Shown here: in pieces, positions 47,082-52,155 of the stretch
How positions within the stretch are numbered: the first letter of the stretch is position 1
Layout: the number at the start of each line of letters is the position of its first letter
From: an uncultured Saprospiraceae bacterium
GTDB taxonomy: Bacteria; Bacteroidota; Bacteroidia; Chitinophagales; Saprospiraceae
Assembly (NCBI GenBank): GCA_937944245.1
Contig: CALDYY010000067.1
Coordinates: 1 to 64,000, forward strand
Reading direction: 5' to 3'
Length of the DNA stretch: 64,000 nt
Made by a program: the position numbers and the translations under genes
The notes under the pieces: generated by a model
The model's input: the letters and a program-made list of their open reading frames with translations, nothing else
Database searches by the model: none
What the model was told of the DNA's origin: nothing

Positions 47082-47498
47082 ATAGCAAAAGATATTTTCC
47101 ATGCAGCAGTTAAGAAAGCTCTAGTTCACGATGGATGGACTATCACACATGATCCGTATGTTGTGAGGACACTGGGTACTAATGCAAGCATTGATCTGGG
47201 TGCAGAACAGTTAATTGGAGCAAATAACGATAGTACAATCATTGCAATCGAAATAAAAAGTTTTATCGGGCCTTCTCTCGTATATGATTTTCACTTGGCA
47301 CTTGGTCAGTATATGAACTATAAGCGTGCTTCATTGCAAAATGATCCTGAACGGTTATTATACTTGGCAGTAACAAATTCAGTTTATGAAATCTTTTTTC
47401 TAAAGCCAGATGTGATGGATGCTGTGCAAACGTTTCAACTTAATCTGATTGTGTTTGATGATGCTACGGAAAAAATAGTACATTGGTTAATTCAATAG
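47082..47498 (+). CDS. XisH-family protein with ATA at the start position
   Basis: The full XisH frame begins A-K-D-I-F-H-A-A-V-K-K-A-L and continues DGWTITHDPYV, RTLGTNASIDLGAEQL, IAIEIKSFIGPS and YMNYKRASL. XisH has a restriction-endonuclease-like fold; IDLGAEQL and EIKSF match its D-(x)n-E-x-K core. The family usually starts MAKDIFH or MPxRDIFH, and here the codon at that place is ATA (47082), right after a TGA (47079). The first normal start, GTG 47163, would drop 27 conserved residues. Either ATA initiates, or the start was lost by G-to-A mutation. It lies 129 bp before xisI. Confidence 0.75.
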   Translation: MAKDIFHAAVKKALVHDGWTITHDPYVVRTLGTNASIDLGAEQLIGANNDSTIIAIEIKSFIGPSLVYDFHLALGQYMNYKRASLQNDPERLLYLAVTNSVYEIFFLKPDVMDAVQTFQLNLIVFDDATEKIVHWLIQ

Positions 47499-47627: not shown

Positions 47628-47969
47628 ATGGAAAAAATAAAAACATATCAAAACATTATTTTAAGCATTCTTGAAGAATATGCTACTTATAAGCCTGTTA
47701 ATATGGACGAAGTAGAACAACAAATTATTGCAGATACTCAACGTAATCATTTTCAGTTGATTAGTATTGGTTGGTTTAAAGACCGCTTCATACACGATAC
47801 TATTTTTCATTTTGATATTAAATCAAATGGGAAAATATGGATTCAAGCGAATTGGACAGATACAGATATAGCAGCTATTTTGGTAGAGCGCGGCGTTGCA
47901 CCTAAAGATATTGTACTTGGTTTTCAACTTCCTCGTTTTAGACGCTTTACAGGATATGCAGAAGCATGA
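47628..47969 (+). CDS. XisI-family protein
   Basis: 113 aa, full length. Matches XisI from start (MEKIKTYQNIILSILEEYA) through HFQLISIGWFKDRFIHDTIFHFDI to the typical end GVAPKDIVLGFQLPRFRRFTGYA. In cyanobacteria XisH and XisI accompany the fdxN element excision; here no element or recombinase is adjacent. It is probably a two-protein module with XisH. Confidence 0.88.
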   Translation: MEKIKTYQNIILSILEEYATYKPVNMDEVEQQIIADTQRNHFQLISIGWFKDRFIHDTIFHFDIKSNGKIWIQANWTDTDIAAILVERGVAPKDIVLGFQLPRFRRFTGYAEA

Positions 47970-48489: not shown

Positions 48490-48520
48490 TTTGACGTGTT
48501 AAACACATTCGGTAACTTTC
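48490..48520 (+). promoter_or_regulatory. Promoter of the EVE-McrB operon
   Basis: TTTG, exactly 19 bp, TAACTTTC: one base off the Bacteroidota consensus. It ends 21 bp before the ATG. Confidence 0.6.
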
Positions 48521-48541
48521 GACATTAACTTATTTTTTTCA

Positions 48542-49984
48542 ATGAAGTATTGGTTATTCCAAGCAAATCCTAAAGTATTCAGATTGAAAGAGGCATTGGC
48601 ATCAGAAGCATTGTCCTCTTTTGCGGTGAAAGCACATCAACAGAACATTAGCCAAGGCGACAAAATTATCCTTTGGCAAACAGGCAAAAGGCAAGGCGTG
48701 TATGCGCTGGCTACGGCTACTTCGGCGGTAGATTTTTTTGATATTGTTCCTTCCGAGCGTCCTTTTTTTCAGGTAGTACCACCTAGAACCAAGCGCGTGC
48801 AGTTGCAAATAGAGTACAATTTATGGAACAAACCTATCACCAAAGAACTTTTACCCGATGGCAAACCTTTTGAGCGTTTTTATGCAGGTTTGCCGAAAAC
48901 AAACTATCAAGCCACACAAGAACAATACGAGGCAATCCTCAATCTTATCCAGCAGTTGGATATTGCTGAAGAACCTATCTTAGAGTATGGCTATCAACCT
49001 ATTTTGCAATTTCCACTTAACCAAATTTTATATGGACCGCCAGGAACAGGCAAGACCTATCAAGCCATCAATCACGCCCTTGCCATTCTAGAAAACAGAA
49101 CATTGGAAGAATTGGCGTTGGAGGAGCGCGTTTCCTTACGTGAGCGATTTGACTACTATCTCAAGCGCGGCGCAATAGGTTTTGTAACCTTTCATGCTGC
49201 TTTTAGTTACGAAGATTTTGTGGAAGGTATAAAACCTGAAATGCAAAATGGACAAATGATGTTTAACATACAGGACGGTATTTTTAAGCAAATGGTACAA
49301 CTTGCGGAGGAAGGCTGGGAAGACGGCAACCGCTATGTGCTTATCATTGACGAAATCAATAGAGGAAACATCGCTAGTATTTTTGGGGAATTAATTACGC
49401 TGCTGGAGGAAGACAAACGAATGGAATCCAGAGAAGCATTGACGACTACGCTACCTTACTCCAAAACTACATTTTCTGTACCGCCTAATTTATTCATCAT
49501 TGGCACAATGAATACGGCAGATAAGAGTATAGTAAGCCTAGATATTGCTTTGCGACGCCGCTTCACTTTTCGCGAAGTGCCTCCGCAACCAACTTTGCTG
49601 CACCATCAATCGGTGTTGGCAGGGGTGAATTTAACAGAATTACTTCATGCGTTGAATGCTCGCATTACGCTACTTTTGGATGAAGACCATTGCATTGGTC
49701 ATGCTTATTTTTATGATGTTTCCACTTTGGACGACCTTCGGGAATTGTTTGCTTATCGCATTATTCCGTTGTTGAGAGAATATTTTTTAGACGACCTAGC
49801 TAAAGTGCAATGGATATTGGGTAATGAATTTGTATCGGAAACCAATAATTTAAAAAAGTATTTATTGCCAAGTGCTATGGAAACAAGCATAGAATGGTAC
49901 GACAAAAAAAGCTATGCCCTTACGCCTATGGAGTCATGGACAGAAAAGACATTTATTCGATTGTATCACCCAAATTACAGCTAA
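48542..49984 (+). CDS. EVE-domain McrB-type AAA+ GTPase
   Basis: 480 aa. Residues 1 to about 140 form an EVE/PUA-like domain (MKYWLFQANPKVFRL, DKIILWQTGKRQGVYALA), a reader of modified bases. Then an AAA+ domain of McrB type: Walker A LYGPPGTGKTY (163-173), Walker B LIIDEINRGN (268-277), the McrB signature MNTADKSI (323-330; Lys replaces the usual Arg after Asp) and LRRRF. McrB hydrolyses GTP and translocates with the McrC nuclease to cut modified DNA. No McrC gene follows; instead its stop overlaps the recQ ATG by one base (TAATG). Confidence 0.88.
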   Translation: MKYWLFQANPKVFRLKEALASEALSSFAVKAHQQNISQGDKIILWQTGKRQGVYALATATSAVDFFDIVPSERPFFQVVPPRTKRVQLQIEYNLWNKPITKELLPDGKPFERFYAGLPKTNYQATQEQYEAILNLIQQLDIAEEPILEYGYQPILQFPLNQILYGPPGTGKTYQAINHALAILENRTLEELALEERVSLRERFDYYLKRGAIGFVTFHAAFSYEDFVEGIKPEMQNGQMMFNIQDGIFKQMVQLAEEGWEDGNRYVLIIDEINRGNIASIFGELITLLEEDKRMESREALTTTLPYSKTTFSVPPNLFIIGTMNTADKSIVSLDIALRRRFTFREVPPQPTLLHHQSVLAGVNLTELLHALNARITLLLDEDHCIGHAYFYDVSTLDDLRELFAYRIIPLLREYFLDDLAKVQWILGNEFVSETNNLKKYLLPSAMETSIEWYDKKSYALTPMESWTEKTFIRLYHPNYS

Positions 49985-52155
49985 TGAACTTGGAAAAAGC
50001 ACAATCAGCATTACAACATTATTTCGGTTATACCTCGTTCCGACCGATGCAACAGGAAGTGGTTAAATCGCTTTACCAAGGCAAAGATGTGTTGTTGCTG
50101 ATGCCAACTGGAGGAGGCAAATCCATTTGTTTCCAGATTCCCGCTATTACAATGGAGGGGGTCGGCGTTGTCGTTTCTCCACTCATTGCATTGATGCAAG
50201 ACCAAGTTAATAACCTGAAAAGCAATGGTATCAATGCAACTTTCCTCAACAGTACCCAAACTGCCACAGAGCAAAGATTAGTGGAAGAAGGCATTTACGA
50301 TGGGAAATACGACTTAGTGTATGTTTCGCCAGAAAAAGTAGTTTCTCAAGATTTTTCTGCGCTACTTTCCAGAATAAAAGTTTGCCTTTTTGCTATTGAC
50401 GAGGCACATTGCATTTCTTCGTGGGGGCATGATTTTCGACCAGAATATGCTCAACTCAAATTTTTAAAGCAGCATTATCCACAAATTCCTATCATTGCTT
50501 GCACTGCCACAGCAGACCAAGTCACGAGAAGGGACATTATTGCACAACTTCAACTGCCGTCGCCCAATGTGTTTGTTGCCTCTTTTGACCGTCCAAATTT
50601 GCGTTTGGAAGTGCGTTCAGGTACTCGTCGTTTTGAGCAAATTGTGAATTTTCTTGTTGAGCATCCTAACCAATCAGGAATTATTTACTGCCTTAGCCGA
50701 AAAAGTACCGAAACCGTTGCCAATAAATTAATCGAAAAAGGGTTTTCGGCGGCTGCCTATCATGCAGGAATGTCGGCACAGGAGCGTCATCGGGTGCAAA
50801 CGGCATTTACAAAAGACGAAACACCAATCATTTGTGCCACTATTGCTTTTGGAATGGGTATTGATAAATCCAATGTTCGTTGGGTGATTCACTATAATAT
50901 GCCCAAAAATATCGAAGGGTTTTATCAAGAAATTGGTCGGTCGGGCAGAGATGGTGCCGCAGCAAACACTTTGCTATTTTATAGCTTGAATGATGTAATG
51001 ACTTGGCGAGAAATCATTGAAAACAGCGAACAGCGTGAGATTTGGCTAGCTAAACTTAGTCGAATGCAGCAATATGCGACTTCGATGTTTTGTAGAAGAA
51101 AAGTGCTACTCAGCTACTTTAATGAAGATTGGCGAAGCAACTGTGGTAATTGCGACGTATGTGACAACCCTCCAAATTACTTTGATGGTACAGTTATTGC
51201 ACAAAAAGCACTTTCTGCCATTTACAGAGCTAAAGAGCAAATTGGGATAAATTTGTTAATTGACGTTTTGCGAGGCTCAAAACGAAAAGAGATATTTGAG
51301 CAACAACTTCACGAAATCAAAACTTATGGTGCAGGTGCGGATTTGAGCTTCGAGGAGTGGCGTTACTATTTGGAACAAATGCTAGAACAAGGCTATATTG
51401 ACATTGCCCACGATGATAAAAACAAGGTAAAACTTACGAAATTAAGCCACGATGTGTTGTTTCAACAGGTAAAAGTACAGTTGGTGAAAATGAGAACAGC
51501 GCAAGAGCGTAAGGAAATGGAAAAGGAAAAAGCGAGCAAAGAGGCAGCGGCTGTTCGACATAGGGTACGCGACGATTTGTTTGAATATTTGCGCAATCTT
51601 CGACGACAACTGGCACAACTGGAAGGAATGCCACCTTACCTTATTTTTTCAGATGCCACTTTGGAAGAAATGGCTGCCATGAAACCCATCACGGAAGCCG
51701 ACATGAAAGCCGTAGCTGGAGTAGGCGCATTGAAGTGGCAAAAATATGGCTTGCAATTCCTAGATGCTGTTAAGCAATATTGTAAGGAAAACAATATCAC
51801 TCCGCCCGAAAGACGTTCTGCGCCGAAACCTTCGTCAGCAGAAACAATAGATAGAATATCCACTTTTCAAATGACTTACCAACTGTTGAAAGAAGGTTTA
51901 TCTTTGGAAGAAATCGCTGAACAGCGCAATTTGAAAGTTGGAACAATAACAGGACATTTGCTAAAATTAAAAAATGAAGGAAAAGACATTGACTTTTCTC
52001 CATTCGTATCACCTGATATTCAGCAAAAAATAATTGATATATTACCAACATTACCTTCACCACCGAGCCAAAAAGATATTTTTTTAGCATTGAACGAAGA
52101 AGTGCCTTATTATAAAATTATGCTAACTTTGGCTATAAAAGCATTGCAAGAATAG
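49984..52155 (+). CDS. recQ: ATP-dependent DNA helicase RecQ
   Basis: About 723 aa. Helicase motifs: Q-motif region YFGYTSFRPMQQEVV, Walker A LMPTGGGKSICFQ, FAIDEAHCISSWGHDFRPEY (DEAH) and the motif VI region YQEIGRSGRDG. The zinc domain is C-x16-CGNCDVC, then a winged helix, an HRDC domain (SDATLEEMAAMKPITE) and a C-terminal HTH (LSLEEIAEQRNLKVGTITGHLLKL). ATG 49984, the first residue of MNLEKAQSALQHYFG, is chosen; the open frame upstream runs inside the previous gene. It unwinds recombination and replication intermediates. Confidence 0.95.
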   Translation: MNLEKAQSALQHYFGYTSFRPMQQEVVKSLYQGKDVLLLMPTGGGKSICFQIPAITMEGVGVVVSPLIALMQDQVNNLKSNGINATFLNSTQTATEQRLVEEGIYDGKYDLVYVSPEKVVSQDFSALLSRIKVCLFAIDEAHCISSWGHDFRPEYAQLKFLKQHYPQIPIIACTATADQVTRRDIIAQLQLPSPNVFVASFDRPNLRLEVRSGTRRFEQIVNFLVEHPNQSGIIYCLSRKSTETVANKLIEKGFSAAAYHAGMSAQERHRVQTAFTKDETPIICATIAFGMGIDKSNVRWVIHYNMPKNIEGFYQEIGRSGRDGAAANTLLFYSLNDVMTWREIIENSEQREIWLAKLSRMQQYATSMFCRRKVLLSYFNEDWRSNCGNCDVCDNPPNYFDGTVIAQKALSAIYRAKEQIGINLLIDVLRGSKRKEIFEQQLHEIKTYGAGADLSFEEWRYYLEQMLEQGYIDIAHDDKNKVKLTKLSHDVLFQQVKVQLVKMRTAQERKEMEKEKASKEAAAVRHRVRDDLFEYLRNLRRQLAQLEGMPPYLIFSDATLEEMAAMKPITEADMKAVAGVGALKWQKYGLQFLDAVKQYCKENNITPPERRSAPKPSSAETIDRISTFQMTYQLLKEGLSLEEIAEQRNLKVGTITGHLLKLKNEGKDIDFSPFVSPDIQQKIIDILPTLPSPPSQKDIFLALNEEVPYYKIMLTLAIKALQE

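What the first reader, a model, noticed from the sequence alone, without database searches (positions are those of the whole stretch)
48490..52155. EVE-McrB without McrC, coupled to RecQ
The AAA+ GTPase with an EVE modified-base reader has all McrB motifs, but the nuclease partner McrC, normally the next gene, is missing. Instead its stop codon overlaps the recQ ATG (TAATG) and a good promoter precedes it. EVE-McrB proteins belong to type IV modification-dependent defence. I infer either a nuclease encoded elsewhere or a new pairing in which RecQ processes DNA recognised by the EVE domain.
Basis: partly seen in the sequence, partly recalled or inferred. Interest (0 to 1): 0.68.

Follow-up and report, generated by a model that had tools for sequence, protein, structure and literature searches.

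The report
EVE-McrB whose McrC lies elsewhere
The gene is the DNA-reading motor half of a two-part enzyme that cuts modified DNA; its cutting half is encoded at a distant place in the same genome, as in many relatives, and the recQ gene next door is most likely a chance neighbour.

Summary
An intact EVE-AAA+ McrB (48542-49984, +) overlaps recQ by one base (TAATG), and no McrC is adjacent. The recQ pairing fails: in the two congeners that carry this McrB, the recQ orthologue lies on another contig, and none of about 60 other EVE-McrB loci in the family has recQ nearby. The nuclease is not missing: this genome has exactly one McrC, with an intact PD-D-x-K site, alone on contig C34, and exactly one McrB. 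In one congener the orthologous pair is adjacent.

Survey of the family (Saprospiraceae) turned up something larger. This EVE-McrB and its McrC are encoded apart in at least 24 genomes by my criterion, through about 8-10 inferred separations. They still co-occur, have correlated trees, and are under strong purifying selection. A closed genome of another family has its lone McrB and McrC over 3 Mb apart. One genus has no detectable McrC in six genomes, and there McrB has lost the signature arginine and an arginine of the finger motif.

Best reading: a type IV McrBC system encoded in trans, a new variant of a known kind that a neighbourhood-based census was prone to miss. Activity is untested.

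The parts
48490..48520 (+). candidate Bacteroidota-type promoter, TTTG-N19-TAACTTTC
   Evidence: pattern match in the intergenic stretch; 12 such matches in the window against 7.1 expected by chance, so weak
48542..49984 (+). EVE-McrB, 480 aa: modified-base reader domain fused to an McrB-type AAA+ GTPase
   Evidence: Pfam EVE and AAA_5; PDB profile match to TgMcrB and EcMcrB; intact motifs
48545..48976 (+). EVE domain, approximately residues 2-145
   Evidence: Pfam match to residues 2-61; profile match of the family to 2ar1 over profile positions 4-119; end approximate
49034..49057 (+). Walker A, GPPGTGKT
   Evidence: and sequence
49508..49564 (+). McrB signature MNTADKS and finger motif LRRRF
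   Evidence: and sequence
49984..52155 (+). recQ, 723 aa, ordinary RecQ helicase; neighbour only, not part of the system in my reading
   Evidence: Pfam domains; orthologues at 60-63% identity in two congeners, not next to McrB there

Best explanation
This gene is the recognition and motor subunit (EVE plus GTPase) of a McrBC-type, modification-dependent (type IV) restriction enzyme whose nuclease subunit McrC is encoded at an unlinked place (contig C34, 62902-64131). Shown here: one McrB and one McrC per genome, both intact, encoded apart; the same pair encoded apart in many Saprospiraceae, with tree agreement and purifying selection on both genes. Inferred from known McrBC biochemistry: EVE binds a modified base, McrB hexamers form with GTP, and McrC joins them from solution, stimulates the GTPase and cuts DNA with its PD-D-x-K site. 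The recQ overlap would make recQ co-transcribed with mcrB in this one species, with no sign of a functional link.
For: Own genome: one PF10117 match (E 3.5e-60, C34) and one McrB match. The McrC has the site RPDI...IDTK and stands without an McrB; its contig has the same tetranucleotide profile as the window (r 0.983, the same as window pieces among themselves). Congener G298 has the orthologous McrB (62% identity) with McrC directly downstream (its McrC reads as two frames), and G297 has both on separate contigs in unrelated surroundings. Family: 43 of 54 EVE-McrB genomes hold a McrC against 71 of 344 others (Fisher p 4e-17, not corrected for relatedness). At least 24 pairs count as apart (each of these has 3 kb or more of contig on the relevant side of at least one gene, and some, such as G373, G482, G593, G452 and G353, lie deep in contigs on both sides). 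Mantel r 0.77 over 39 pairs and 0.87 over the 21 split pairs; 18 of 36 bipartitions shared; partial r 0.53 given HisS. dN/dS 0.03-0.11 for both genes in split genomes where it could be computed. In six genomes of genus g148 without detectable McrC, McrB has lost the Arg of MNxxDR and the middle Arg of LRRRF.
Against: No biochemistry or interaction data; that the distant McrC binds this McrB is inferred. Tree agreement is partly explained by vertical inheritance of each gene (both correlate with HisS, r about 0.5). Most genomes are fragmented assemblies. The one close congener with an adjacent pair has a frame-shifted McrC. Five EVE-McrB genomes outside g148 also show no McrC (G395, G441, G493, G590, G597), one of them rated 100% complete. 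The loss of arginines in g148 is a single lineage event, and one McrC-bearing genome (G593) also lacks the signature Arg.
Confidence: 0.78

Rival explanations
1. EVE-McrB works without McrC, for example as a GTP-driven roadblock or scaffold on modified nucleic acid.
For: Six genomes of genus g148, and G395, keep an EVE-AAA protein with no detectable McrC; g148 McrB pairs show dN 0.08-0.23 against saturated dS, so the protein is still constrained.
Against: In g148 the signature Arg and an Arg of the finger motif are lost, whereas the window protein keeps LRRRF (with Lys in the signature, MNTADKS) and its genome keeps an intact McrC.
Confidence: 0.12
2. EVE-McrB and RecQ form a functional pair in which RecQ unwinds or processes DNA recognised by EVE.
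For: One-base TAATG overlap and same strand, so co-transcription and translational coupling are plausible.
Against: recQ orthologues in the two congeners are on other contigs; no RecQ near any other EVE-McrB locus of about 60 in the family, nor within about 1.5 kb of 29 McrB loci drawn across the phylum. The EVE-domain census text held here does not mention RecQ (PMC7641849).
Confidence: 0.04
3. The window gene is a stranded remnant left after McrBC broke up and is on its way to loss.
For: Gene surroundings differ in all three congeners with the gene; some genomes lack McrC.
Against: Full-length open frame and intact motifs; strong purifying selection on split McrB and McrC in several genera; one McrC retained in the same genome.
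Confidence: 0.04
4. The separation is an assembly artefact.
For: The genome is in 147 contigs.
Against: Both genes lie well inside long contigs (25 kb remain 3' of McrB, 62.9 kb remain 5' of McrC), many relatives show the same, and the closed genome G249 has a lone McrB and lone McrC far apart on one contig.
Confidence: 0.02

Closest known systems
McrBC type IV restriction (E. coli K-12 McrBC; Thermococcus gammatolerans McrBC)
   Same: AAA+ GTPase with Walker motifs, NxxD signature and finger arginines fused to an N-terminal base-reading domain; McrC with PD-D-x-K nuclease; profiles match 6ut3/6hz4 and 6ut5_G
   Different: mcrB and mcrC are not in one operon; reader domain is EVE rather than DUF3578 or YTH-like
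EVE-McrB fusions (Bell et al. 2020, PMC7641849)
   Same: EVE domain fused to McrB GTPase, the commonest EVE fusion in defence systems, abundant in Bacteroidetes
   Different: the text passages retrieved describe EVE-McrB with McrC in the usual sense; separation of the genes is not discussed in them
Shared or unlinked McrB in Bacillus (McrB3P with McrB2P, PMC4722110)
   Same: a McrB (BA_2283) encoded away from the only McrC-like gene named (BA_0928), proposed to work with it in trans
   Different: there a linked mcrB-mcrC operon is also present; here the only pair is separated, and repeatedly so across a family
CoCoNuTs (Bell et al. 2024, PMC11090510)
   Same: McrB/McrC relatives, some with a helicase gene
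   Different: those have an NxD motif, coiled coils and an SF1 UPF1-like helicase; this has NxxD, and its neighbour is an SF2 RecQ that is not recurrent

Membership tests
McrBC type IV restriction system | McrB: AAA+ domain with NxxD (MNxxDRS-type) signature and finger arginines | tested here: met
   MNTADKS and ALRRRF, Walker A and B intact; PDB profile E 2.6e-87 to TgMcrB
McrBC type IV restriction system | N-terminal modified-base-reading domain on McrB | tested here: met
   EVE just above cut-off in this protein, matched in 21 of 21 relatives at E 0.01 or better, 2ar1 match
McrBC type IV restriction system | McrC partner with PD-(D/E)xK nuclease in the same genome | tested here: met
   PF10117 E 3.5e-60 at C34; motif PDI...DTK; profile matches solved McrC chains
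McrBC type IV restriction system | mcrB and mcrC adjacent in one operon (usual; I treat it as typical, not as defining the enzyme) | tested here: not met
   separate contigs, both genes far from contig ends on the relevant side
McrBC type IV restriction system | GTP-dependent cleavage of modified DNA | not testable with these tools
   needs biochemistry
CoCoNuT | NxD signature and coiled-coil McrB | tested here: not met
   signature is NxxD (MNTADKS); compact 480-aa EVE-AAA protein
EVE-McrB-RecQ as a new system | recurrent linkage of recQ to EVE-McrB | tested here: not met
   no recurrence in congeners, family or phylum sample

The most novel reading that the evidence does not exclude
In Saprospiraceae a former mobile defence operon has become a dispersed, largely vertically inherited two-gene function working in trans, possibly a resident nucleic-acid surveillance function, and in one genus (g148) the EVE-AAA subunit has dropped McrC and the canonical GTPase arginines and been repurposed while staying under selection.
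Probability: 0.25. Interest if true: 0.7.

Novelty: new variant of a known kind. Interest (0 to 1): 0.5.

Why it matters
Defence genes are usually found by their neighbours. A two-subunit restriction enzyme whose genes have come apart repeatedly, yet still co-occur and appear to evolve together, is easily missed by such methods: the McrBC census in PMC11090510 filtered for both subunits in one neighbourhood, or for an adjacent gene of suitable size, and added only manually annotated orphans. It implies that an 'orphan' McrB or McrC may be half of a working enzyme, and the g148 genus offers a natural test of what McrB does once McrC is gone.

Tried and rejected
RecQ as partner: rejected for lack of recurrence. 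A hidden McrC beside the gene: rejected, recQ overlaps the stop codon. Ankyrin lipoprotein gene as an obligatory third part: it lies between McrB and McrC in six loci and beside only one of the two in several split genomes, but is absent near both in G000, so it reads as an old neighbour that marks where the pair came apart. A first McrB-HisS comparison gave r 0.02 because the HisS sequences were badly cut; redone with tblastn-anchored sequences it is 0.50. Paper searches for unlinked McrB/McrC found nothing, in an open-access library only.

Full report
What is in the window. The EVE-McrB frame is 48542-49984 (+), 480 aa, and recQ is 49984-52155 (+), 723 aa; the sequence at the junction is GCTAATGAAC, a one-base TAATG overlap. 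Pfam assigns EVE (24.1 bits against a cut-off of 23) and AAA_5 to the first protein and the full RecQ set to the second. The EVE call is weak alone but all 21 aligned relatives match EVE, and the profile of those relatives matches solved McrB GTPases (6ut3, 6hz4) and, over positions 4-119, 2ar1, which I know as an EVE-fold protein. Walker A, Walker B, the signature MNTADKS and ALRRRF are present. The upstream stretch holds a TTTG-N19-TAACTTTC match, but such matches are only slightly over chance in the window.

Where the nuclease is. The genome (3.80 Mb, 147 contigs) has one McrC, at C34:62902-64131, with no McrB near it, and one McrB, the window gene. C34 has the same tetranucleotide make-up as the window (r 0.983, the same as parts of the window with one another). 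The McrC carries RPDI...IDTK and its family profile matches solved McrC chains.

The genus. Congener G298 has the orthologous EVE-McrB (62% identity) with McrC directly downstream, though McrC reads as two frames there; its recQ orthologue is on another contig. Congener G297 has EVE-McrB, McrC and recQ on three contigs, with McrB followed by a convergent gene. The third congener (73% complete) has neither McrB nor McrC. No flanking genes are shared between the McrB loci of the three. The recQ linkage is therefore confined to this species among those held.

The family. Searches of 398 genomes with the EVE-McrB and with PF10117, followed by reading about 80 fetched loci, show McrB and McrC apart in 24 genomes by my criterion (different contigs, and at least 3 kb of contig left on the relevant side of at least one gene without the partner), with several deep in contigs on both sides; 6 more are uncertain and 16 are on one contig, adjacent or with a few genes between. 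These counts include a few McrBs of a sister group without EVE (G393, G442, G560, G593, G657). An ankyrin-repeat lipoprotein gene lies between the two in six loci; in split genomes it stays beside McrB in some (G373, G466) and beside McrC in others (G369, G419, G317), which points to separate break-ups of one ancestral cluster. Parsimony on the McrB tree gives 8 changes, or 10 if only linked-to-split is allowed. No RecQ lies near any of these McrBs.

Do the separated genes belong together? Over 39 pairs, McrB and McrC tree distances correlate (Mantel r 0.77; 0.87 for the 21 split pairs), 18 of 36 bipartitions are shared, and the correlation stays at 0.53 after accounting for HisS distances in 19 genomes. 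Each gene also correlates with HisS at about 0.5, so largely vertical descent explains part of the agreement. 43 of 54 EVE-McrB genomes hold McrC, against 71 of 344 others; this test ignores relatedness. In split genomes where dS is not saturated, dN/dS is 0.05-0.08 for McrB (one pair 0.03 at very high dS) and 0.09-0.11 for McrC.

When McrC is truly gone. Genus g148 has the EVE-AAA gene in six genomes and no McrC by PF10117 or by a profile made from this clade's own McrCs, which finds the positive controls. With completeness of 62-91% each, chance absence from all six is unlikely. All six lack the Arg of MNxxDR and carry a Ser at the middle Arg of LRRRF. [quoted passage not shown] The protein is still constrained (dN 0.08-0.23 with saturated dS), which suggests a changed role rather than decay. 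This is one lineage event, so the association is suggestive, not proof.

Beyond the family. Of 29 McrB loci drawn across the phylum, 27 have McrC within about 1.5 kb (one of these, G045, is only a fragment). The two exceptions, G190 and G249, belong to another family of the same class and have a non-EVE McrB; in G249, one closed contig of 7.03 Mb, a lone McrB sits near 5.99 Mb and the only McrC at 2.31 Mb with no McrB beside it, about 3.3 Mb apart the short way round if the chromosome is circular. So separation is possible in a closed assembly and is not confined to the EVE clade.

Mechanism, with what is shown and what is inferred. Shown: gene content, separation, co-occurrence, tree agreement, selection, motifs. 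Inferred from established McrBC work: EVE recognises a modified base, the AAA+ ring forms with GTP and moves on DNA, and McrC binds the ring and supplies the nuclease. Nothing in that mechanism needs the genes to be neighbours. Which modification EVE reads here is unknown.

Novelty. A precedent for a McrB away from the McrC gene exists in Bacillus, where a second McrB was proposed to share the McrC of a linked operon (PMC4722110). The McrBC census (PMC11090510) filtered for both subunits in one neighbourhood or an adjacent gene of suitable size, and added only manually annotated orphans, so split pairs would tend to be missed. My paper searches found no description of repeated separation, but they cover only open-access papers. 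I rate it a new variant of a known kind.

Noticed in passing
L065, L202-L206 (genus g148): EVE-AAA proteins with a Walker A variant (GPSGTGKT or GPTGTGKT), a Ser in the finger motif and a changed signature, in six genomes with no detectable McrC, still under constraint: a candidate repurposed EVE-AAA protein.
   Followed up: partly
window:49190-49340 region of EVE-McrB against L057, L151, L173 and others: Many relatives carry an insertion of about 150 aa in the AAA+ domain between FHxxFxYEDFVEG and Walker B; the window's lineage and several others lack it, and it varies even within one genus (g222).
   Followed up: partly
L057:8978-10135, L058, L144, L167, L169, L171, L176, L185, L197 and L089: An ankyrin-repeat gene, with what looks like a lipoprotein signal, lies between McrB and McrC or beside one of them.
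   Followed up: partly
20 McrB loci, e.g. L057:6512-6985 (-): A small membrane protein gene is conserved divergently upstream of EVE-McrB across many genera, a sign of a stable chromosomal locus; it is absent at the window locus, where a DUF4112 gene is divergent instead.
   Followed up: no
window:47082-47498 and 47628-47969 (+): XisH and XisI genes side by side; XisH homology starts at an Ile codon near 47082 with no ATG, GTG or TTG there, so XisH may use an unusual start or be damaged.
   Followed up: partly
window:45100-46362 (-): A patatin-like protein (MDGGGSWSIIQIKTL) stands alone, about 2.2 kb from the EVE-McrB start.
   Followed up: no
G249:C1 (L258, L252) and G190 (L257, L253): Non-EVE McrB and McrC encoded apart in two genomes of another family of the same class, one of them a single closed contig.
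   Followed up: partly
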